Shown here: in pieces, positions 47,229 to 58,091 of the stretch | Numbering within the stretch: the stretch's first letter is position 1 | Layout of the letters: the number at the start of each line of letters is the position of its first letter | From: Verrucomicrobiales bacterium | Lineage (GTDB): Bacteria > Verrucomicrobiota > Verrucomicrobiia > Verrucomicrobiales > DEV007 | Assembly (NCBI GenBank): GCA_029213025.1 | Contig: JARGOZ010000010.1 | Location: 1-64,000 of the forward strand | DNA: 64,000 nt | Reading direction: 5' to 3' | Program-made: the position numbers and the translations under genes | The notes under the pieces: model-generated | Told to the model about the DNA's origin: nothing | The model's input: only the letters and a program-made list of their open reading frames with translations | Database searches by the model: none

Positions 47229-48380
47229 ATGGGAGTTCGATGGACAATAGAACGGGCAATGGAGGAGTCCCCTCCGCATTTTCACCCTCTCGCTGGATGT
47301 GACTGGGAGAATTTTTCAGCACATCTTTCGGCCCATGAAGGGTTTACGGAACGTACACACAGCCAAAGGGTAAAGAGTCGCCTGGCTGTGATTGCAAGAC
47401 AGCCTTTCACGGTGATGGAACGTCTTGTGTTTTCGAAAAAAGTGGAGAATTACCAACTTCCCCAGCCACCCATTTTCATCATCGGTCACTGGCGAAGCGG
47501 TACGACGCACCTGCATAACCTGATGTCGTCAGCTCCCCAATTTTCCACGATTGATTTTGGTCAGACAGCGATGCCGCACAATCTTTTAAATCCCACCCGC
47601 TTCATTGGCAGGGCCGCCATGTCGACTGCTGTTCCAAAGGACCGGGGGATGGACCGTGTGAAAATGGGTATGAAAGAGCCGCAGGAGGAGGAAATGGCTT
47701 TAGGAAATCTTAACCCGGTAAGCTACTACAATGTTTTCTATTACCCGCAGGAAATGCAGCAACAGTTTGACCGGTCGATCTTTTTGGAAGGTTTAACTGC
47801 GGAGGAAGTTGAGAAATTTAAAGAGGTGTATGTCAGGCTTTTGAAAAAGCTGTCTATTGCCGGCAAAGGCAAGCCGCTGTTATTGAAAAACCCGGCTTCG
47901 ACCGCCAGAGTTGAGCTTTTGGATCAGCTGTTTTCCGGAGCCCGGTTTATTCATATCGTAAGAAATCCTTACGAAGTATTTGCATCGATGCTTCACCATT
48001 ATCCCCGGCTGTTTAACGCTTTTGCCTGGCAAAAGTTTGATAATATCGACCTCGAAGAGATGGTGTTTTACAAATACGGCCGACTCATGAAAGGATTTCT
48101 CGATCAAAGAAAACAGGTGGAAGGTCGCCTTTTGGAAACCTCGTACGAGAAGATTGTTTCCGATCCTGTAGGCGAAATCGGACGGTTTTATGATTCGTTC
48201 GGGCTGACAGGGAAAGACCAAGCCCTCGACGAAATCAAATCCTACGTCAGCGCTCGCAAGGGCTACAAGAGAAACCAGTATCAGTTAACCGCTGACCAGG
48301 TGGAGCGGATACAGAGCGAGTGGGGCTTTGCGCTCGACGAATGGGGCTACGACGTGCCGGATTCTATCGAAGTCGTTTAG
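47229..48380 (+). CDS. Sulfotransferase family protein
   Basis: 383 residues. The PAPS 5'-phosphosulfate-binding loop is IIGHWRSGTTHLHNLMSS (about 84-101), and the 3'-phosphate-binding region is VELLDQLFSGARFIHIVRNPYEVFASMLHHYPRL (about 235-270). These proteins move sulfate from PAPS to an acceptor such as a sugar, lipid or phenol. The acceptor is not predictable. The gene overlaps the 3' end of the convergent acyl ligase-carrier gene by 4 bases. CysQ at 7760 could remove the PAP product. Confidence 0.88.
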   Translation: MGVRWTIERAMEESPPHFHPLAGCDWENFSAHLSAHEGFTERTHSQRVKSRLAVIARQPFTVMERLVFSKKVENYQLPQPPIFIIGHWRSGTTHLHNLMSSAPQFSTIDFGQTAMPHNLLNPTRFIGRAAMSTAVPKDRGMDRVKMGMKEPQEEEMALGNLNPVSYYNVFYYPQEMQQQFDRSIFLEGLTAEEVEKFKEVYVRLLKKLSIAGKGKPLLLKNPASTARVELLDQLFSGARFIHIVRNPYEVFASMLHHYPRLFNAFAWQKFDNIDLEEMVFYKYGRLMKGFLDQRKQVEGRLLETSYEKIVSDPVGEIGRFYDSFGLTGKDQALDEIKSYVSARKGYKRNQYQLTADQVERIQSEWGFALDEWGYDVPDSIEVV

Positions 48381-50272
48381 TCTTCCAGCTCCTTCTGCAA
48401 AGCCAGCAACGCCTCTTCTTCGGACATTTCATTGATATCTTTGTCGTCAGATGCAGCGGCGGGTGGGGCGTCACCGAGGCCGAGAGCATTCAACAGGTAA
48501 CCGGAAAGGTCTTTGATCCTCGGGTAATCAAATACGAGGGTGGCCGGCAGTTCCAGATCGCCGCCCAGATCATTCTGCAGATTGGTGGCGAAAGTCACCA
48601 TCATGAGTGAATCCATACCTGCTTCCTGGAGGCCGGTTTCGGGCGCAGGTGGCGCGGTGGTATTGGTCAATGCCTGTATCGAATTCTGCAGATGAGTAAT
48701 CAGCATTCGCTCACGCGAAGATCCATGACTGTTTGTCAATTGCGTCAGCAAAGTAGGGTTGTCTGCCTTATCATCGCCTTCAGCCTGCGCGGCGACCGGC
48801 TCGGGGCCGAGTTTGCGCAATTCGATTTTGAGAACTTTGCCGGCTGGATTTCTCGGCAATTCGTCGAGGAAAATGATTTTCGAAGGGACTTTGTATTGCC
48901 CGAGATTGGCCAGCGCATAGTTTCGGATCGCGTTGGCATCAGGTTCCGTGCTGTCACTTACCACAAAAACGGCCACCTCTTCACCGAGGACTGGTTCCGG
49001 TAATCCGACTACCGCGCAATCTTTGACTCCGGGTGCATCGAGTAAGACACGTTCCACTTCTGAAGGGAACACTTTCATCCCGCCGATCGCAATCATGTCT
49101 TTGATGCGATCTACGATATAGAAATACCCGTTTCGATCCATTTTGCCTACATCACCGGAATAGAACCAGCCGTCGCGAACTGCCAGAGCCGTTTCTTCCG
49201 GACGGTTCCAGTAACCCAACATCACATTGGGGCCGCGCACGATGATTTCACCGGGTGTTTCCGGATCGCAAGTTTCGCCGGTCTCCGGATCAACCACTTT
49301 CATCTCGACCAGATCAACCGGGACACCGATTGAACCCGGGACATGTTTCAGAGGATGGTTGTATGATGCAAATGGCGCAGTCTCCGTCAGCCCGTAGCCT
49401 TCATAAACCGGCATGCCGAATTTCTCTTGCCAGGCGGCTCCCAGTTGCGGAGCAAGCGTTGCCGCTGCGGAGAAACAATATGTGACGGATTCTATATCGA
49501 CCGGTTCACAGGAATCGAGCATCAGGTGAAAGGTGGTCGGCACTCCGAACAGTTTTGTTACCTTTTGCTCAAATATAATTTTCTTTGTCTCCGCCAGATC
49601 GAAAACCGGCTGCAAAATGATAGTTGCCCCAATGTTCAAACCCGAGTTCAAAATAGCATTCTGGCCGTAACAATGAAACAGGGGGACCATCAGAAGAAGA
49701 CGGTCATCTGTAGTCATGCCGCAAAGGTGGTTAAACGAATGAACTGTAGATCGAACATTCTTGTGCGACAGTGTCGCGCCTTTCGGGAAACCGGTAGTTC
49801 CGGATGTATAGAGAATGATTCCGGGATCATCCGGCTCCATTTCAAGAAATTCACCTTCAGGAAGACCGGGTTGATTGAGAAGTATATCGTTATTCACTTC
49901 CTGACCATCCCCGGAAACAGTCAGGGTTTCGCAATTATCATAGGAAACGCCGGATTGTGTAGTTATGACAATTCCGGCATCGCAATCGGAAATGATAAAG
50001 CCCGCCTCTTCTTCAGTAAGCCTGGTATTAACCGAAACAGCGATTGCCCCGATCCGTAAGATTCCATAGTACCAGACGGGAAAAGCAGGCACATTGCCCA
50101 GAACTAATGCAACACGGTCACCTCTGGACACACCGAGATCCCGCAGAATGCACGAAGCCCGCCCCGAGAGTTGTTCCAGCTCGGTGTAGTTTAACCGGGA
50201 ATCGCCGAACACCAGAGCCGACTTCTCCGGAAACAGTTTCGAACATTCAATCAAGCCCTGACAGATATTCAT
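48377..50272 (-). CDS. AMP-dependent acyl ligase fused to a carrier (phosphopantetheine) domain
   Basis: 631 residues. Residues about 1-500 form an ANL-family adenylating enzyme: LYTSGTTGFPKGATLSHKN (ATP loop), YGLTETAP (A5), YSGDVGKMDRNGYFYIVDRIKDMI (A7/A8) and the catalytic lysine near NPAGKVLKIELRKLG (A10). Residues about 525-610 form a carrier domain with the phosphopantetheine serine in AGMDSLMMV (S555). Activation of an acid and loading onto the attached carrier is likely. The aromatic amino acid lyase gene lies 15 bases upstream on the same strand, so cinnamate or coumarate is a plausible substrate, by inference. No ketosynthase or thioesterase is adjacent. Confidence 0.85.
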   Translation of the reverse strand: MNICQGLIECSKLFPEKSALVFGDSRLNYTELEQLSGRASCILRDLGVSRGDRVALVLGNVPAFPVWYYGILRIGAIAVSVNTRLTEEEAGFIISDCDAGIVITTQSGVSYDNCETLTVSGDGQEVNNDILLNQPGLPEGEFLEMEPDDPGIILYTSGTTGFPKGATLSHKNVRSTVHSFNHLCGMTTDDRLLLMVPLFHCYGQNAILNSGLNIGATIILQPVFDLAETKKIIFEQKVTKLFGVPTTFHLMLDSCEPVDIESVTYCFSAAATLAPQLGAAWQEKFGMPVYEGYGLTETAPFASYNHPLKHVPGSIGVPVDLVEMKVVDPETGETCDPETPGEIIVRGPNVMLGYWNRPEETALAVRDGWFYSGDVGKMDRNGYFYIVDRIKDMIAIGGMKVFPSEVERVLLDAPGVKDCAVVGLPEPVLGEEVAVFVVSDSTEPDANAIRNYALANLGQYKVPSKIIFLDELPRNPAGKVLKIELRKLGPEPVAAQAEGDDKADNPTLLTQLTNSHGSSRERMLITHLQNSIQALTNTTAPPAPETGLQEAGMDSLMMVTFATNLQNDLGGDLELPATLVFDYPRIKDLSGYLLNALGLGDAPPAAASDDKDINEMSEEEALLALQKELED

Positions 50273-50287
50273 CCGTTTAGTTGTAGC

Positions 50288-51958
50288 TCAGACTAAATTC
50301 AGATCGTTGAAAGAATCCACTACTGGCGATACCGCGCTTATGAGTTCTCCCTGCTCGGAAATTGAATCGTAGAGAGACGTAATCAATGGTTCGAGGCTGT
50401 TGGAAGTTTCATTACTGATCAGCGGCGCTTTTGCCCCGGGTTTTCTGTCTATGGCATCGTAAACAGCATTGTAGACGGGTTCCAGCATGCTGCTGAGCAC
50501 CGTGCGCCCGTCAAAGTTACCATCTTCGATCAACGATGACCGTAAATCGACTGCCTGAACCGCAAAAATCAGAGAAACTGCGGCGTAGCGATTTGACAGA
50601 TCGACGGACTGAGAGGCGAGATTGGCTGCGCCCCAACTCAAGCCGTTGATATTTTGATTGTACTGTTCAGCATGGGTAGGGAAGTCATCCACCAAAGGTT
50701 TACCCAGATGGGTAATCATGGGCATAATCGAATTACCCAAAATCTGCAGCCCTTTCAAATTCATATCGATCGGAGAGGAGCCCTGTTGAGTGAGAGACGC
50801 TGGCAAACCGTGATTGAATTCCGGTGATACCAACAAGGCAATCTGTACATCGAGGTGTTTGGCGATCAGACCCAGATATTTCCTGAGATCATCCATAGCC
50901 ATGCCGATGTATTGTCCGAGAAAATTACCGCTCTGATAAAAACGATCACATCCGGTATCAATCAAAGGATTGTCAGTGATTGAGTTCATCTCGGTCTCGA
51001 TAGTTTCCTCTACCCGCAGCATACCGTCGACGATTGGTCCCATATACTGGGGCAAACAGCGAATCGAATACCGGTCCTGGAGATGGTTTCCGCTGGAAGG
51101 ACGGGTATAATCAACGTCCAGCAAATCCCTCATCATTTCAGCGGACCAGATTTGACCGCGATGAGGCTTGCAGCGATGAACAAATGAAGCAAACGGATCT
51201 TCGTGGGCGAGCAAAGCCTTCGCCATCATGGCGTGCGCGGCGAAGGAAATTCCCAGAATATTCTTTGCCGAATGCAGGTTGTTCGCCGCGATAGCGGTGG
51301 AAAAGGTGGTGCCGTTTACGATCGCCAGACCTTCCTTGGGTTGTAATTCGATTGGCTTCAGCCCGGCAACTTGCAGCGCTTCGTCTCTTGAGATTTCCCG
51401 GTCGCTGCCGGTAGTGATTTGGCAGGGTGCCGCCTGGCCGGTAATCGCTCTGGCAATCACAGCGAGAGGCACAAGATCGCCACTGGCACCGATTGACCCC
51501 AGTTCACCCACTACAGGTGTGAGATCTTCGTTCAGAAAGGCAACCAGCCGCTCTACTATTTCCATTCTCACTCCGGAGGCACCGCGCAGAAGCATATTCG
51601 CCCGCAAAAGCATAGTCGCCCGGACGTGCTCTTTCGGAATCGGCTTACCTGTGGAACAGGAAAGAAATTCGAGCAAATTTTGCTGGGATATCCCGGCGTC
51701 TGCGGAGGATACCGGTAAATCAGCCATTCCTCCGAAACCGGTGGTAATACCGTAAATTTTTTGCCCCTCGTCAACGGCTCTGCTCACAGCATCTTCCGCC
51801 AGTTTCATCCGGGTCCTGACTTCCCCGCTGTCAGTGATGGATACCTTTTTCGCCCCATACGCAACTGACTGAATGTCTTCAATATCCAGTGGGTCGCCGC
51901 ACAGACAAAGGGTCGCAGGTTCGCAAAGTGTCAGATTATGGTAGCTGTGGTTTGTCAA
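50288..51958 (-). CDS. Aromatic amino acid ammonia-lyase (HAL/PAL/TAL family)
   Basis: 556 residues of the MIO-dependent ammonia-lyase/aminomutase superfamily. The MIO triad is A158-S159-G160 in GSIGASGDLVPLA. The catalytic tyrosine is Y69 in IYGITTGFGGM. The substrate-selectivity pair is F98-L99 in NLLEFLS. In known enzymes Phe-Leu goes with phenylalanine, His-Leu with tyrosine and Ser-His with histidine, so a phenylalanine lyase (cinnamate former) is favoured. The start is a TTG at 51958 with no Shine-Dalgarno; the next methionine is at residue 51, too late. Histidine catabolism is less likely because no hut genes are near. Confidence 0.87.
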   Translation of the reverse strand: MTNHSYHNLTLCEPATLCLCGDPLDIEDIQSVAYGAKKVSITDSGEVRTRMKLAEDAVSRAVDEGQKIYGITTGFGGMADLPVSSADAGISQQNLLEFLSCSTGKPIPKEHVRATMLLRANMLLRGASGVRMEIVERLVAFLNEDLTPVVGELGSIGASGDLVPLAVIARAITGQAAPCQITTGSDREISRDEALQVAGLKPIELQPKEGLAIVNGTTFSTAIAANNLHSAKNILGISFAAHAMMAKALLAHEDPFASFVHRCKPHRGQIWSAEMMRDLLDVDYTRPSSGNHLQDRYSIRCLPQYMGPIVDGMLRVEETIETEMNSITDNPLIDTGCDRFYQSGNFLGQYIGMAMDDLRKYLGLIAKHLDVQIALLVSPEFNHGLPASLTQQGSSPIDMNLKGLQILGNSIMPMITHLGKPLVDDFPTHAEQYNQNINGLSWGAANLASQSVDLSNRYAAVSLIFAVQAVDLRSSLIEDGNFDGRTVLSSMLEPVYNAVYDAIDRKPGAKAPLISNETSNSLEPLITSLYDSISEQGELISAVSPVVDSFNDLNLV

Positions 51959-52186
51959 ACTGATAAAGGTTGGTTGACGTTATCAAAACATACAAGTCCT
52001 GTCATGCGGAAATGTTATGCTTTTATGTATATTCTGGAAAATATACTCAATTTAACTGTATTTGAAAGACTTAAATAACTTTAACGATGGTTTTTTTAGT
52101 AAATTCGGCGCTTTTGTTAGAAATTACCGGTTCATCTATTGGTATAAGGAACGCAGTCGAAGCGGTTTCATGTATTTTCGACTTTT
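51959..52186 (-). promoter_or_regulatory. Promoter region of the ammonia-lyase/acyl-ligase operon (228 bases)
   Basis: The longest noncoding stretch, AT-rich, between the RND pump stop and the lyase start. It contains a perfect dyad GTATATT-CTGGAA-AATATAC at 52027-52046, described separately. No strong -35/-10 pair is visible. The 3' end of the pump gene has no obvious terminator, so read-through is possible. Confidence 0.45.
52027..52046. promoter_or_regulatory. 20-bp dyad upstream of the ammonia-lyase gene
   Basis: Perfect 7-base arms GTATATT and AATATAC with a 6-base spacer, about 70 bases before the lyase start. Its size fits a dimeric regulator operator. On the minus strand it overlaps a weak promoter-like TTGAGT with 17 bases to CATAAA. 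No regulator gene is adjacent. Confidence 0.45.
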
Positions 52187-55100
52187 TTATTCAGGATCGT
52201 AAGTAGCCGGGTAGGCGCGACCTATAAACAGCAAATATACCGATGGGACAAAACACAGGGCGAGGAGGGTAGCTCCGCCCACTCCACCCGCAATTGTGGT
52301 TGCTACCGGTGGCCAGAATCCACCATCGTCGAGCATGAGAGGGATAAAGCCGGCAATTGTGGTCAGCGTGGTAGCCAAAATATGTCTGGTTCTCCGGATA
52401 ATGATTTCAGCAATCGCCGAGGGCACCCCAACCCTTGCTTCCGGGTCGTCGCGGATTCCAGCCATCACGACGATGGCGTCATTCACAGCAACTCCAACCA
52501 AACCCATAGTTCCTACCACCCCCATAAACCCGAAGGGAAATTTAAACAACCAAAGTGAACCCAGCCCCAGACCGATGGAAAGCCCGCCTACCAGTGCAAT
52601 TACCAGAGCAACCCGAAATGATCGAAATGACGCCACCAGTGTTGCTATGATCAAAGCGATCAACAGGGGAATATTCGCCATCAAATTGTTCACTGCTTCG
52701 TCGCGCTTTTCCGCTTCGCCGCCGTATTCGAGAGAATAACCCGGCGGCAAAAAGAAATCCGAGTTGGCAAGCCGTTCCTTAAATTCCGTTATGACGAGAT
52801 CGGGAAGCGTGCCTGCAGTGATATAAGCTCTCACCTCGTTGAATCTCTGACCGTCGCGGCGGGTGATTGCGGCGACCTCCGAACCGAGTTCGAGTTCACT
52901 AATAGCGGCGAGGGGGAATCCGCTTCCTGGTTGATGCAGGTGCGGCGACTGTAGTTCAAGTGTTGCAATATCACCGGTGTTCTGTCGAGTCAGGCTGTCA
53001 GTCCGGACCCGAATCGGTATTTCCTCAGTGCCGTCGATCAGCGAACCACTGTGGAGGCCTTCCAGAGATGAATACAGCTGATTTTCGATCTCATGATTGC
53101 TGAGTCCGGCTTTGCGGACGTCATATTCGTCGAGTATTACAGCCAGTTTCGGGACAATTTCGTTTAGATCCGCGCGAGTGTGAACGACTTCATTAGTCTC
53201 GGCCAGAATCAGCCGAACCTTGTTGCCCAGTTTTTGCAAAATCGCGATGTCAGGTCCGAACAGTTTTACTTCCACCGGGGCTTTAAACGGAGGTCCCTGT
53301 TCCAGCTGACGGACGAGGACCCGGCAGGTCACAAATTCGTCATCCACCTTGTTCTGCATTTTGCGAATAATCTCGCGCGAATTTACTCCGGGCTCACATT
53401 CCACCAGCGCTTGACCATAGAAAGCTGCATTGCGGCGTGAGGCCATCATGTTGTAGAAAAAAGCCGGGGAACTTTCGCCGATAAACCAATGGACCCGCTT
53501 TACTCCGTCCATTTTCAGAACAGAATCCCGAATCGCGGCCGCTGTCTTCCTCGTCTCTGCTAACGTGGTGGAGGCAGTCATCTCCATTTCGATTTGGAAC
53601 TGCTCCCGGTCTGCCGGCGGGAAAAACTGCTCGGGCAAACTACGGGAAACGTAAAATCCGGTCACAGGCAGGAGAAATCCAATAACCACCCCGAGAACCG
53701 GCAAATGAAACAATTTTACCAGCAGCCAACGATAAACTTTAAGCAGAAATTGGCTGTAGATCCCACGCTGCAAAAAGCCGGACTGTACCCTGTTGGATGT
53801 GGAACTGTACCCTGTTGAATCACCAATTGTACCCTGTTGAGTCTTGCCTGGTCGGAACAAAAGTGCGGTGAGCGCCGGGATTACGGTCATCGCAAGAAGG
53901 AACGAAGCGTTGATCGCAAGAATCACGCTGATCGCAATCGAACCGACAAATTCACCACTGGAACCCGGCAGCATCACGATAGGGGCAAAGGCGAGGGTAG
54001 TGGTTAAGGTCGACCCAAACAGCGGCAGCCCGAGCTGCCGGATTGTTTCGGTAATCGCCTCCAGCGGGCTTTTTCCTTCCCTCAAACCGTTGCCTACCTC
54101 ATCCACCATGACAATTGCGTTGTCGATGAGTAATCCAAGAGCAATAATCAGGCCGGTTACCGACATTTGATGAATCGGTATATCAAGGACCCGCATACCG
54201 CTGATCACAATCAGTGTGGATAGCGGGAGAGCCACTCCGACCACGATCATACTCCTCCAGCCCATCAGCAGAAAAACAACGATCACCACAGCCAATGTCC
54301 CGACAAGGAGGTTTTTAGCCAATTGAGTGAGACGGTCCTGCACATAAATATTCTGCGTGAACAAAACATCCAATTCGATTCCGCGAGGCAGGCTATCTGT
54401 AAACTCAGCGAGTCTTTCGTATAGATCTTCGTTCCAAAGATCGATACGGCTTTCATCCCGGACGAACGCAGCCACGACAATCGAATCTTTCCCGTCGACG
54501 ATGGTCATGCTGTCCGGAGGGGATTTGACGCCTTTTTTGATCCGGGCAATTTCATCGAGTCTGGCCAACTCATTTGATCCATACCGAATCGGGGTTGAGC
54601 CAATTCGCTCGAGGGAATCGAGGTCCTGATCGAGTTCAATGACCAATTCGGAATCCTCGCCCCGGAACATTCCCGCTGAACGCTTCGATTCACTTTGTTC
54701 AATCTGCTGAGAAATGTTGCCAATCGAAACGCCCAACCGGTGGAGATTTTCGCCCGGAACCTCGATAAGCACCTCTTCCTTTTGTTTTCCGAAAATCGCA
54801 ACGCTCTCCGTTCCCGGCAGAGCGCGGATAATTGCCTTCAAGTCTTCACTCAACCGGGTCAGAATAGTGAAATTTGGCTGTTCATCACCGGTCCACTGCA
54901 GTGCAACGATCGAAGCGTAGGACCGCATTTCCGGCCGCTCGAACTCCGGGTCGTGAGCTTCATCGGGAAGGGATTTCGTCGTTTCCGATATTTCATCGCG
55001 GACGCGGGACCAAACGGTATCGACATCTGTGACCTCCTCCTTGAGCTCAATGGTGACCGTCGAAATACCGGCCATGCTCTCCGAGGTAATATGCTTTATC

Positions 55101-55321
55101 CCTTTAATTGTTTGGATATCCTCTTCCAAAGGTCGGCTGATCTGCGACTCAACCCTGTCTGCGTCCGCCCCGGGGAAAACGGTTCGAACGATTCCGTACC
55201 GCTGGACGAGTATCGGATCCTCCATCCTCGGCATGGTGGAATACGAACTCAGCCCCGCGACAGTGATGATGCCGATGAGGAGTAAAAGCAGTCGGTGATT
55301 GTTGTAAAGGAGTGTCGCCAT
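52187..55321 (-). CDS. RND-family efflux permease
   Basis: 1044 residues. Inner-membrane proton-driven pump of the AcrB/CusA type. It starts MATLLYNNHRLLLLLIGIIT (TM1) with the family motif MPRMEDP. TM4 holds GLIIALGLLIDNAIVMVDEV, where the first aspartate of the proton relay is kept and the second is Asn. Twelve transmembrane helices and two large periplasmic loops are apparent. I chose the ATG at 55321, which overlaps the adaptor stop by one base. In the cytoplasmic linker after about residue 490 an in-frame repeat array reads QQGTIGDSTGYSSTSNRVQS. No outer-membrane channel gene is present, and the substrate is unknown. Confidence 0.93.
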   Translation of the reverse strand: MATLLYNNHRLLLLLIGIITVAGLSSYSTMPRMEDPILVQRYGIVRTVFPGADADRVESQISRPLEEDIQTIKGIKHITSESMAGISTVTIELKEEVTDVDTVWSRVRDEISETTKSLPDEAHDPEFERPEMRSYASIVALQWTGDEQPNFTILTRLSEDLKAIIRALPGTESVAIFGKQKEEVLIEVPGENLHRLGVSIGNISQQIEQSESKRSAGMFRGEDSELVIELDQDLDSLERIGSTPIRYGSNELARLDEIARIKKGVKSPPDSMTIVDGKDSIVVAAFVRDESRIDLWNEDLYERLAEFTDSLPRGIELDVLFTQNIYVQDRLTQLAKNLLVGTLAVVIVVFLLMGWRSMIVVGVALPLSTLIVISGMRVLDIPIHQMSVTGLIIALGLLIDNAIVMVDEVGNGLREGKSPLEAITETIRQLGLPLFGSTLTTTLAFAPIVMLPGSSGEFVGSIAISVILAINASFLLAMTVIPALTALLFRPGKTQQGTIGDSTGYSSTSNRVQSGFLQRGIYSQFLLKVYRWLLVKLFHLPVLGVVIGFLLPVTGFYVSRSLPEQFFPPADREQFQIEMEMTASTTLAETRKTAAAIRDSVLKMDGVKRVHWFIGESSPAFFYNMMASRRNAAFYGQALVECEPGVNSREIIRKMQNKVDDEFVTCRVLVRQLEQGPPFKAPVEVKLFGPDIAILQKLGNKVRLILAETNEVVHTRADLNEIVPKLAVILDEYDVRKAGLSNHEIENQLYSSLEGLHSGSLIDGTEEIPIRVRTDSLTRQNTGDIATLELQSPHLHQPGSGFPLAAISELELGSEVAAITRRDGQRFNEVRAYITAGTLPDLVITEFKERLANSDFFLPPGYSLEYGGEAEKRDEAVNNLMANIPLLIALIIATLVASFRSFRVALVIALVGGLSIGLGLGSLWLFKFPFGFMGVVGTMGLVGVAVNDAIVVMAGIRDDPEARVGVPSAIAEIIIRRTRHILATTLTTIAGFIPLMLDDGGFWPPVATTIAGGVGGATLLALCFVPSVYLLFIGRAYPATYDPE
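53781..53840 (-). repeat. 22-bp tandem array, three copies, inside the RND permease gene
   Basis: On the plus strand the complementary core ACTGTACCCTGT starts at 53782 and 53804, and a one-mismatch copy (ATTGTACCCTGT) at 53826, exactly 22 bp apart. Read in the gene's direction the peptides are QGTI, TGYS and NRVQ. Three units are 66 bases, so the frame is kept. The flanks are GATTCA and ATCCA, as in other arrays. Confidence 0.95.
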
Positions 55322-56241
55322 TACTTCGTCATGGGCACTGCCTTCACTTTTTGTCCCGGAACAATTCGGTGTGTGCCGGTCGCCACCACATTGGTTATCC
55401 GGAAGACTGTGCCATCGACCCAGGCCCGGCTGTTTTCGACATGGAAAACTTCCACGAAATGGCGTTCTACGATTTCCCCGGCATCCGCATCGTTTTCCAC
55501 CGAGAAAACGGACCACAACCCGCGGCTTTCCCTGGTGAGAGCGGAGAGGGGGACCCAGAATCCCGGGGTATCTTCGACCCGGTCAATTTCCAGTTGCACA
55601 GTCTGTCCCGGCAGATTTTTTTCTGAGACTTTCGCGGGAAGGGTAAAAATAACCGTTCGGGTACGACCGTTACGGTCAACTTCCGGCAGGCGGCTGTCCA
55701 GTTTCGCGCGGTGCTTGTCTCCGGCGAGATCCAATTCGTACACCTCTCCCGCCGACATTTTATCTGCGACATCAACCGGGAGACTAAACCACACTTCAAG
55801 TGGAGAATCTTCCACAATACGTAAAACCGGAGTTCCGGGGCTAACCACTGCGCCCACTGTGGCGTGTCTCATTGAGACAAAACCGTCGAAAGGAGCTTTC
55901 ATGTCGGTTCCCGCGTCCAATTCTGCAAGGATGCCATTCTTTTTCACTTCATCGCCGGGGTCGACATTGATGCTCTTGATCCTGCCGCCACGTTCGAACC
56001 CTAAATCAGCCGTTTGCCGGGCCTTTGTAATTCCATTGTAGGTTCTCTTTACGTGAAACGATTTTCCAGGACTTACCTCCAGTGTGTTAACCTTGAGAAT
56101 GCGAACTCCATCGTCATTTTTTGCCGAATTTTCCGCAGGAGCAGTCTCGGTTCGGCCGGCCAGGAAGACTACGAGGATGAGCGCAGCCAGGAGCAGGCAA
56201 ACCAGTCCGGACAACACGTTGCTTATCATTCTCACAGGCAT
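55321..56241 (-). CDS. RND periplasmic adaptor (membrane fusion protein)
   Basis: 306 residues of the HlyD/AcrA-like adaptor family. An N-terminal anchor (LSGLVCLLLAALILVVFLA) leads to a split biotinyl/lipoyl-like domain (GKARQTADLGF-type start, FERGGRIKSINVDPGDEVKKNGILAELD, then MKAPFDGFVSMRHATVGAVVSPGTPVLRIV) and a beta-barrel domain. It links the RND pump to an outer-membrane channel. Its stop overlaps the pump ATG by one base (TAATG). ATG 56241 is the chosen start; another at 56229 is possible. Confidence 0.9.
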   Translation of the reverse strand: MPVRMISNVLSGLVCLLLAALILVVFLAGRTETAPAENSAKNDDGVRILKVNTLEVSPGKSFHVKRTYNGITKARQTADLGFERGGRIKSINVDPGDEVKKNGILAELDAGTDMKAPFDGFVSMRHATVGAVVSPGTPVLRIVEDSPLEVWFSLPVDVADKMSAGEVYELDLAGDKHRAKLDSRLPEVDRNGRTRTVIFTLPAKVSEKNLPGQTVQLEIDRVEDTPGFWVPLSALTRESRGLWSVFSVENDADAGEIVERHFVEVFHVENSRAWVDGTVFRITNVVATGTHRIVPGQKVKAVPMTK

Positions 56242-56414
56242 GAATCGTTTTCGCTCATAATGTTAGGGGGCGCAATAGGAAAAACCAAAACCTATTTTGT
56301 TAAAATAACGGTTACCCCGCGGAACGATTAGCCGTATTCTGGAGTGGCTTTCAGAACTTGTGGTTTTTCAAGTTGACCGTAAGTTATCAAATCAACACCG
56401 AAAAGTCTTATATT
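56242..56414. promoter_or_regulatory. Divergent promoter region, adaptor versus FAD enzyme (173 bases)
   Basis: The gap separates the starts of the adaptor-pump operon and the FAD-dependent enzyme. A TTGACC box at about 56373 and TATATT just before the 56415 ATG are the only promoter-like pieces, and their spacing is wrong. No large dyad was seen. Shared control of the two units is an inference from the layout. Confidence 0.35.
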
Positions 56415-58091
56415 ATGGGGAATCTAAATTCAAAAGATTATGACGTTGTAATTTTGGGAGGAGGGCTGGCCGGGCTGACGTGCGCTCTACAGTGCCGGAA
56501 AGAATGTCCGGAAGCATCGATCGCAGTGCTTGAAAAGAGTGACCATCCGGTCCCGGAAGCGACCCATAAAATCGGAGAGTCGAGTGTTGAGGTTGGTGCG
56601 CACTACTACTACAAAGTTCTCGATCTGGAAGACCATCTCGAAAATGATCAGATTCCCAAGATGGGGTTACGCCTGTTTTTTGACCGCGACGATAATTCGG
56701 CGATTGATAACCGCCTCGAAGTGGGTGGGACCGGCTTCCCGCCATTTCCCAGCTATCAATTTGACCGCGGGCGTTTTGAAAACCACCTCCGCGAGCGGAG
56801 CCTTTCCGATGGAATCGACTTTGTGTCTTCGGCCAACATAAAGAACATCGAAATCAATGAAGGACGCACTCCCCACGAGGTGACATTTGAAAAAGACGGC
56901 GAGTCACAAAACGTTTCCGCGAAATGGATCGTAGATGCCAGTGGTCGGGCCGGCCTCCTCAAACGGAAATTTGGTCTTCAGCAGGAATGCGATCATAACG
57001 CCAGCTCGGCGTGGGTTCGGATCGGCAAAAGAATCAAGGTTGATGACTGGAGCGATAACAAAGAGTGGGGCAGTGCTCATGGTGAAGAAAACCCGCGTTG
57101 GCAAAGCACAAACCACCTGCTTGGAGAAGGCTACTGGATTTGGTTGATCCCGCTGGCTTCCGGTTCCACTAGCATTGGTATCGTTGCCGATCAGGATATC
57201 CACCCGCTGAGCGAATACAATTCTGAAGAGAAGTTTCTCAGCTGGATCGACAAGTACCAGCCGGTTCTGGGAAAACAGTTGCGGGCTAATCAGGAATTGA
57301 TTCAGGATTTCGGTGCGATCAAACGCTACTCCCGCGAGTGCAAGGAGCAGTTTTCAAAAGACCGCTGGGCGATTGTCGGCGATGCGGGTTTCTTTATTGA
57401 CCCCTTCTATTCACCGGGGAATGATTTTATCGCTCTGGCGAATACGTTTACCTGTGATCTGATTAAAAGAGATTTGGCAGGTGATATGTCGAATCTCTAC
57501 CGCTACTTTATGTACAACAAACTGTTCCGTGTTTTCTTTAATAACACCGGAAAGGTTTTTAAACAGAACTACCAGTTGTTTGGCAACCATCAGGTGATGC
57601 CGGTTAAGATTATCTGGGACTGGTTGATCTACTGGTCGGTGACAGGACAAATTTTCATTCACGACCGTTTGTGTGACAAGAACATGTATACCCGCCACAT
57701 GTTCAAACTAAAGCGCCTCAATGATCTCAATCATGACATGCAGGCGCATTTTAGAAAGTGGCACAAGGAAAAGCCTTCCTGGCAGAATGAGGGGCTGATC
57801 AATACATCAGAACTATGTATCGCAATGGATACCAACCGGGCACTTCTGGACGAATTGAGTGATAAGGAATTCAATAAGCGGTTTGCTGAAAATGTGGCGA
57901 AGATGGAAAATCTTTTTTGGGAAATCGCCGATCATTCCGGCATCCCGATCGATACACACATCAAGAGAAAGGATCATCCTGAAGCGGTCAAAGGGGGATT
58001 TGCAGAAGTGTTTATGGTTTCGTCAAACAAGGGTGAAAAAGAGAAATCGATGGATGATAAAATGTCTTCAGATTCTCTCGTAGCGATGTAG
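56415..58091 (+). CDS. Flavin-dependent halogenase-like oxidoreductase
   Basis: About 558 residues. The FAD-binding loop is VVILGGGLAGLTCALQC (about 11-27). KIGESSVEVGAHYYYKVL carries the GES element found in flavin halogenases and geranylgeranyl-reductase relatives. WIWLIP at W241-P246 matches the WxWxIP halogenase motif, and GDAGFFIDPFYSPGNDF resembles the FxxPxxSxG element. These point to the flavin halogenase superfamily, but many members are non-halogenating monooxygenases or reductases. I chose the ATG at 56415 (MGNLNSKDYD); an open frame reaches back to 56358. The C-terminal extension of about 200 residues has no known motif. Confidence 0.8.
   Translation: MGNLNSKDYDVVILGGGLAGLTCALQCRKECPEASIAVLEKSDHPVPEATHKIGESSVEVGAHYYYKVLDLEDHLENDQIPKMGLRLFFDRDDNSAIDNRLEVGGTGFPPFPSYQFDRGRFENHLRERSLSDGIDFVSSANIKNIEINEGRTPHEVTFEKDGESQNVSAKWIVDASGRAGLLKRKFGLQQECDHNASSAWVRIGKRIKVDDWSDNKEWGSAHGEENPRWQSTNHLLGEGYWIWLIPLASGSTSIGIVADQDIHPLSEYNSEEKFLSWIDKYQPVLGKQLRANQELIQDFGAIKRYSRECKEQFSKDRWAIVGDAGFFIDPFYSPGNDFIALANTFTCDLIKRDLAGDMSNLYRYFMYNKLFRVFFNNTGKVFKQNYQLFGNHQVMPVKIIWDWLIYWSVTGQIFIHDRLCDKNMYTRHMFKLKRLNDLNHDMQAHFRKWHKEKPSWQNEGLINTSELCIAMDTNRALLDELSDKEFNKRFAENVAKMENLFWEIADHSGIPIDTHIKRKDHPEAVKGGFAEVFMVSSNKGEKEKSMDDKMSSDSLVAM

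What the first reader, a model, noticed from the sequence alone, without database searches (positions are those of the whole stretch)
47229..58091. Possible aromatic-acid-based metabolite locus with its own pump
The region contains a phenylalanine-type ammonia-lyase (would make cinnamate) 15 bases upstream of an acid-activating ligase fused to a carrier domain, a convergent sulfotransferase, an RND pump with adaptor, and a flavin halogenase-like enzyme divergent from the pump. Together this could make, modify (halogenate or sulfate) and export an aromatic compound loaded on a carrier. There is no ketosynthase, condensation domain or thioesterase here, so it does not match aryl polyene, flexirubin or NRPS loci that I know. 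It may be a minimal or unrecognised cluster, or simply neighbouring genes.
Basis: inference. Interest (0 to 1): 0.65.

Follow-up and report, generated by a model that had tools for sequence, protein, structure and literature searches.

The report
Split cinnamate-starting polyketide pathway with pump
These genes make cinnamic acid from phenylalanine and load it on a carrier; related bacteria in two phyla keep them next to a polyketide synthase, two halogenase-like enzymes and a pump, whereas here the synthase lies elsewhere in the genome, so the locus is half of an uncharacterised natural-product pathway.

Summary
The lyase has the Phe-type active site (MIO ASG, selectivity pair FL) and groups with the assayed enzyme PbPAL. 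The next gene is an AMP-ligase fused to a carrier domain. In three same-genus genomes (Verrucomicrobiota) and in Pirellulales (Planctomycetota) the same pair runs into a large type I PKS (KS-AT-DH-KR-ACP-KS*-AT*), with two flavin-halogenase-like genes and the same adaptor-RND pump. In an Alphaproteobacterium, lyase, ligase and carrier are one protein, followed by a PKS. The window lacks the PKS, but its genome holds the orthologue across two contig ends (C295/C140); the second halogenase and AT* are missing. The sulfotransferase is a resident gene, not part of it. Most likely function: cinnamoyl-carrier starter, extended by malonyl units and KR/DH to a phenyl-polyene-type polyketide, possibly halogenated, exported by the pump. 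Starter supply is well supported; chain length, halogenation and release are inferred. The terminal KS* (Cys to Ser) with inactive AT* is conserved in both phyla and unexplained. I found no published product for this cluster; it is a new variant of a known kind.

The parts
50288..51958 (-). phenylalanine ammonia-lyase (predicted), makes cinnamate; TTG start
   Evidence: Pfam PF00221 1e-132; best PDB match 9EQ5 = PbPAL, 1.1e-169; MIO triad ASG and selectivity pair FL
48377..50272 (-). AMP-forming acyl ligase fused to a C-terminal carrier domain (loading protein)
   Evidence: PF00501, PF13193, PF00550; phosphopantetheine Ser in AGMDSLM
52187..55321 (-). RND (AcrB/AcrD/AcrF family) efflux permease; likely start ATG 55321, overlapping the adaptor stop
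   Evidence: PF00873 8.7e-150; TAATG overlap; same neighbourhood in relatives
55321..56241 (-). periplasmic adaptor (membrane fusion protein) of the pump
   Evidence: TIGR01730 RND_mfp above cut-off
56415..58091 (+). flavin-dependent halogenase-like enzyme (FHal1), divergent from the pump; ATG 56415 (ORF from 56358)
   Evidence: PF04820 5.2e-15; PltA and other flavin halogenases as best PDB matches; GGGLAG, PKMG Lys, WIWLIP and DPFYSPG motifs
47229..48380 (+). sulfotransferase: neighbour, judged NOT part of the pathway (boundary marker)
   Evidence: PF13469 1e-28; homologues in 30/34 genomes of the genus including cluster-free ones; NA37-sulfotransferase pair conserved in G023

Best explanation
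The locus is the starter-supply, tailoring and export half of a cinnamate-primed type I polyketide pathway. The lyase deaminates L-Phe to trans-cinnamate. The ligase domain adenylates cinnamate and loads it on its own carrier domain. The carrier hands it to the KS of a single-module type I PKS (KS-AT-DH-KR-ACP-KS*), which in this genome is encoded away from the locus, across contigs C295/C140. Malonyl extension with ketoreduction and dehydration gives a phenyl-diene or, if iterative, a phenyl-polyene thioester. FHal1 probably halogenates an activated position. The MFP-RND pump exports the product. Shown: gene content, order and conservation, active-site motifs, the PKS orthologue in the same assembly, the lyase-ligase-carrier fusion in another phylum. 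Inferred: substrate of the ligase, hand-over to the unlinked PKS, number of cycles, halogenation, release, cargo of the pump.
For: Adaptor-RND, PAL-ligase/ACP-PKS, FHal2, FHal1 together in Pirellulales G298, G387, G563, G291 (G470 and G474 cut by contig ends), and FHal1<>FHal2-MFP-RND-PAL-ligase/ACP-PKS in same-genus G068 and G136, with G168 in two contig fragments. Co-occurrence in exactly 4 of 289 genomes. PAL-ligase-ACP fused in one 1201-aa ORF followed by a PKS in Alphaproteobacterium L006. PKS orthologue in the window's own genome: C295 part 66% and C140 part 60% identical to the G068 PKS; the two contig ends meet in frame with no apparent gap. C295 belongs to this lineage: it shares an EPSP-synthase operon with G023 (62.9-83% identity), the same relative that best matches the window's sulfotransferase. 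PAL has FL like PbPAL, an assayed PAL, and groups with it in the tree. KS1 Cys and His motifs, AT1 GHSLG/HAFH (malonyl type), DH, KR and ACP motifs intact.
Against: In this genome the PKS is not linked to the locus, FHal2 is absent from the assembly and the terminal AT* is gone, so the pathway may be altered or decaying here. The phenyl ring of cinnamate is not electron-rich, an awkward target for this halogenase class. No thioesterase or other release enzyme is conserved. No ligase or halogenase activity has been measured.
Confidence: 0.72

Rival explanations
1. The locus works on its own without a PKS: it makes a simple (halogenated) cinnamic acid derivative released from the carrier and exported.
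For: No ketosynthase on the window's contig; the PKS is unlinked here.
Against: Every relative with an uncut contig has the PKS directly after the ligase, and the orthologous PKS with intact KS1, AT1, DH, KR and ACP is retained in this genome.
Confidence: 0.1
2. The pathway in this genome is a remnant being lost: split from its PKS, without FHal2 and without the terminal AT*.
For: FHal2 not found in the assembly; AT* absent from the C140 part; PKS relocated.
Against: All remaining ORFs are intact with conserved active-site motifs. AT* already lacks its catalytic Ser motif in all relatives where it could be read, so its loss need not matter. FHal2 could lie in the 5% of the genome not assembled.
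Confidence: 0.15
3. The PKS closes the chain to an aromatic product (chalcone/flavanone- or pyrone-like), as the fungal FnsA does, rather than to a polyene.
For: Same domain order as FnsA: activating domain-carrier-KS-AT-DH-KR-ACP (PMC9606254). A phenolic or 1,3-dicarbonyl product would suit flavin halogenases.
Against: FnsA has a TE, here absent; DH and KR look active.
Confidence: 0.12
4. The lyase-ligase pair belongs to a furanolide pathway (cyb/ncl/mac type).
For: The closest lyase-ligase neighbours outside this cluster are cyanobacterial furanolide-type loci, ligase 44-49% identical.
Against: No CybE-like TPP enzyme or CybF-like KASIII among the genes scanned in the window locus, and the relative clusters are built around a PKS instead; the furanolide-type lyases have YH (Tyr type), these have FL.
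Confidence: 0.03

Closest known systems
PbPAL of Planctomyces brasiliensis (PDB 9EQ5; PMC5651878, PMC12535398)
   Same: Falls in the group of lyases of this cluster (100/100 support), FL selectivity pair, ASG MIO; characterised as a PAL; the 2017 paper reports that PAL genes of its set are associated with fatty-acid and polyketide operons
   Different: Only the enzyme has been studied; no pathway or product assigned; its genome was not available here to test for the full cluster
Furanolide clusters cyb/ncl/mac (CybB lyase, CybC ligase)
   Same: Adjacent lyase-ligase pair; ligase homologous over its whole catalytic part
   Different: Tyr-type lyase, ligase without carrier domain, CybE/CybF instead of a PKS; no match to the pump in these loci
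FnsA fungal NRPS-PKS (naringenin synthase, PMC9606254)
   Same: Carboxylate-activating domain + carrier priming a KS-AT-DH-KR-ACP with a cinnamic-type acid
   Different: One fungal protein with TE; A domain instead of an acyl-CoA-ligase-type domain; neighbouring genes are reported as unrelated to the pathway
Aryl polyene / flexirubin clusters (PMC3992019, abstract only)
   Same: Ammonia-lyase + ligase supply an aryl starter; predicted product partly similar (aryl polyene)
   Different: Flexirubins start from a Tyr lyase and a 4-coumarate ligase; type II (discrete KS/CLF) synthases by general knowledge, here a type I megasynthase; no dialkylresorcinol genes seen
Strobilurin clusters of Basidiomycetes (PMC6158276, abstract only)
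   Same: Aryl starter, reducing PKS; a halogenase is mentioned in the text (search counts)
   Different: Fungal; different PKS C-terminus; no homology tested

Membership tests
Phenylalanine ammonia-lyase (MIO aromatic lyase) | ASG triad forming MIO, catalytic Tyr loop, FL at the selectivity positions | tested here: met
   GASGDL, IYGITTGFGG, NLLEFL in the window protein; FL in all 12 PKS-cluster lyases of Verrucomicrobiota and Planctomycetota, in L006 and in PbPAL; YH in nearly all cyanobacterial homologues
Phenylalanine ammonia-lyase (MIO aromatic lyase) | Deaminates L-Phe in vitro | not testable with these tools
   Only the relative PbPAL has been assayed (PMC5651878)
Cinnamate-primed type I PKS cluster | Lyase + ligase-carrier loading protein | tested here: met
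   fusion in L006
Cinnamate-primed type I PKS cluster | PKS linked to the loading gene | tested here: not met
   Not in the window; orthologue on C295/C140 of the same assembly; linked in all relatives with uncut contigs. So the window locus is not itself such a cluster; the claim is that it works as part of one
Cinnamate-primed type I PKS cluster | Ligase prefers cinnamate | not testable with these tools
   Inferred from adjacency, fusion and homology to CybC
Flavin-dependent halogenase | FAD motif, active-site Lys, WxWxIP, conserved DPxYSxG motif | tested here: met
   GGGLAG, Lys101 (577-aa numbering) in PKMG aligned with KRG of 3e1t, WIWLIP, DPFYSPG; conserved in FHal1 and FHal2 sets
Flavin-dependent halogenase | Halide incorporation | not testable with these tools
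   no assay; similarity to known halogenases is low
Furanolide biosynthesis | CybE (TPP) and CybF (KASIII-like) next to lyase-ligase | tested here: not met
   absent from the window locus; relative clusters have a PKS there; a TPP enzyme and a KASIII-like enzyme are present in cyanobacterial L009
Aryl polyene / flexirubin cluster | Discrete type II KS/CLF set linked to lyase/ligase | tested here: not met
   no KS on the contig; the linked synthase in relatives is a type I megasynthase

The most novel reading that the evidence does not exclude
A family of natural-product clusters shared by Verrucomicrobiota and Planctomycetota in which a cinnamoyl-primed type I PKS ends in a KS whose active-site Cys is Ser and an AT without its catalytic Ser. 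This conserved pseudo-module would release or hand over the chain (or set its length) in place of a thioesterase, giving halogenated phenyl-polyenes exported by a dedicated RND pump. In the window's species the pathway works from two separate loci.
Probability: 0.3. Interest if true: 0.7.

Novelty: new variant of a known kind. Interest (0 to 1): 0.55.

Why it matters
Few natural products have been assigned to Verrucomicrobiota and Planctomycetota (general knowledge). This cluster is compact (seven genes), recurs in both phyla, has a clear starter logic and an unusual conserved terminal KS(Ser)-AT(inactive) pair with no thioesterase, so one heterologous expression could show both a new product class and how the chain is released. 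It also shows that inspection of this locus alone misses the link, because the PKS and its starter genes have been separated.

Tried and rejected
Sulfotransferase as tailoring enzyme: rejected. Furanolide membership: rejected. Recent foreign DNA by composition: GC of the cluster equals that of the window (0.505 vs 0.50-0.51), and there is no tRNA or Rfam RNA in the window, so no sign of a recent island. Exact sequence overlap between C295 and C140 ends: none found; only frame and alignment continuity. A phylum-wide sample of 367 genomes added no further member. Literature searches for a Planctomycete PKS with lyase and halogenase found no description of this cluster (by titles and abstracts), but only open-access papers are held. 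Ligase PDB matches (feruloyl-CoA synthetase, FadD13, 4CL) do not decide the substrate. The empty site for the cluster could only be approached from the sulfotransferase side; the other side is not syntenic in G023. No structure was predicted: the families were clear from sequence.

Full report
OBSERVATION. The lyase stop and ligase start are 15 bases apart, the adaptor stop and permease start overlap as TAATG, and the sulfotransferase and ligase stops overlap by four bases. The window is on contig C168 of a 7.88-Mb, 338-contig assembly, 95% complete with 4.5% contamination.

THE CLUSTER IS REAL AND LARGER THAN THE WINDOW SHOWS. Among 289 genomes of the same order, close lyase (above 690 bits), ligase-carrier (above 860 bits; next best 232) and halogenase-clade (480 bits or more; next best 227) matches occur in exactly the same four genomes: the window's own, G068, G136 and G168, all of one genus. 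In the three relatives and in Pirellulaceae (Planctomycetota) the ligase-carrier gene is followed at once by a very large ORF. In L002 (the same contig as G068:C81) this is a type I PKS with KS-AT-DH-KR-ACP-KS-AT. A survey of 346 genomes of the order of L004 (a Pirellulaceae MAG; called Pirellulales here) found six with the ligase-carrier protein. Mapping showed adaptor and RND pump, lyase, ligase-carrier, PKS, FHal2 and FHal1 together in G298, G387, G563 and G291; G470 and G474 are cut by contig ends. So there is a seven-gene cluster: adaptor, pump, lyase, loading ligase, PKS and two different halogenase-like proteins. The order differs between phyla (halogenases at the PKS end in Planctomycetota, at the pump end in Verrucomicrobiota), which suggests selection on the set and not mere close descent (inference). 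In Alphaproteobacterium L006 lyase, ligase and carrier form one 1201-residue protein, again followed by a PKS: a fusion that directly ties the three functions together.

THE MISSING PKS. The window's contig has no ketosynthase, but the genome has nine ketoacyl-synthase matches on other contigs. Two contigs hold the orthologue of the cluster PKS: C295:1-2586 (-) matches residues 16-860 of the G068 PKS at 66%, and C140:1-4101 (+) matches residues 863-2227 at 60%. Both pieces run off the first base of their contig and meet in frame (...KDEDDSV | ALSQTIAKL..., aligned with ...KDRSDGAALIETLGRL... of G068), so they are very probably one gene. Pfam gives KS-AT on one and DH-KR-ACP-KS on the other. 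C295 is not an obvious contaminant: GC and tetranucleotide usage agree with the window, and four of its genes are syntenic with G023 (62.9-83% identity), the same relative that best matches the window's sulfotransferase and keeps it beside NA37. Two further differences in this genome are the absence of FHal2 from the assembly and of the terminal AT* from the PKS. That the locus itself is a misassembly is unlikely, since the junction lies between two complete genes whose stop codons overlap by four bases, but only long reads can settle it.

WHAT EACH PART DOES. Lyase: ASG for the MIO group, the catalytic Tyr loop, and FL at the two selectivity positions, as in all PKS-cluster homologues and PbPAL; nearly all cyanobacterial homologues have the Tyr-type YH. 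The best solved match is 9EQ5, which is PbPAL of Planctomyces brasiliensis, chosen and assayed as a PAL in PMC5651878. In the tree it falls within the 13-row group of PKS-cluster lyases (100/100). Ligase: an acyl-CoA-ligase-type domain plus carrier domain with its Ser. Its nearest neighbours outside this cluster, 43-49% identical and also beside a lyase, lie in loci with a TPP enzyme (L009, L011), and in L009 also with a KASIII-like enzyme, as in furanolide clusters. There CybB is the ammonia lyase and CybC, described as a long-chain acyl-CoA synthetase, makes coumaroyl-CoA (PMC12395478; see also PMC13288894). Cinnamate as substrate is therefore the natural inference, not a test. PKS: KS1 with DTACSSSL and both His motifs, AT1 with GHSLG and HAFH (malonyl type by general knowledge), DH with the H...P and D motifs, KR with the LDD motif, ACP with LGLDSLM. 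The second KS has DTASSSSL (Cys to Ser) in every cluster where it could be read (G136, the others), and the following AT has GxGxG in place of GHSxG. Halogenases: FAD motif, PKxG Lys, WxWxIP and DPxYSPG are invariant or nearly so, with PltA and other flavin halogenases as best solved matches. The genome has phosphopantetheinyl transferase candidates.

MECHANISM. Phe to cinnamate (lyase), cinnamate to cinnamoyl-S-carrier (ligase), transfer to KS1, extension with malonyl units, ketoreduction and dehydration. One cycle gives 5-phenylpenta-2,4-dienoyl-ACP, several cycles a phenyl-polyene. Halogenation probably happens on a carrier-bound or otherwise activated intermediate, because plain phenyl is a poor substrate for this enzyme class (general knowledge). 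The terminal KS*-AT* pair is unlikely to extend the chain in the usual way; I propose that it takes part in release or hand-over, or limits chain length, but I have no evidence that chooses between these. Export by the RND pump is inferred from its constant presence. The fungal FnsA, with the same domain order plus TE (PMC9606254), shows that such an architecture can also give an aromatised product, so the product class is open.

WHAT DOES NOT BELONG. The sulfotransferase has homologues throughout the genus, in 24 of 24 good genomes whether or not they have the cluster; in G068 its closest homologue lies on another contig, and in cluster-free G023 it stands beside the same NA37 gene as in the window. 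The genes beyond FHal1 (peptidase M28, MenB) look unrelated by annotation.

VERDICT. A conserved, apparently uncharacterised cinnamate-primed type I PKS cluster, seen in the window in a split form. I found no paper describing it (open-access library only). The general link of such lyases with polyketide operons was already reported (PMC5651878). The kinds of parts are known; their combination, the two-phylum distribution, the conserved KS(Ser)-AT(inactive) end and the split in this genome are what is new.

Noticed in passing
G000:C211 (L052-L054), C234 (L055), C33 (L057): The genome holds other large ketosynthase-bearing genes: 3991-aa and 2909-aa ORFs on C211, a 2563-aa ORF on C234 and a 1567-aa ORF on C33, only about 31-39% identical to the cluster PKS over their main matches.
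   Followed up: no
L006:9983-13588: Aromatic amino acid lyase, AMP-ligase and carrier domain fused in one 1201-aa ORF in an Alphaproteobacterium, followed by a 1870-aa PKS and, further on, more PKS and ligase genes.
   Followed up: partly
L022:8158-13391 and L023, L024 (Shewanella): A lyase homologue with the selectivity pair AL lies beside a TPP enzyme and another AMP-binding ligase gene in L022, resembling a furanolide-type locus in Shewanella.
   Followed up: no
L041:3838-5688: A third, divergent flavin halogenase-like gene (28% to FHal1) next to the cluster in G068.
   Followed up: no
window:16706-21847: 1713-aa protein combining Planctomycete-type cytochrome (PSCyt1, PSCyt2), PSD1 and WD40 repeats.
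   Followed up: no
window:55321-56241: The adaptor (306 aa) is shorter than in relatives (about 355-408 aa ORFs); part of the difference in L002 is an acidic C-terminal tail.
   Followed up: no
L131 (G470:C120): In one Pirellulales genome the PKS and FHal1 ORFs are each split into two pieces, possibly sequencing errors or decay.
   Followed up: no
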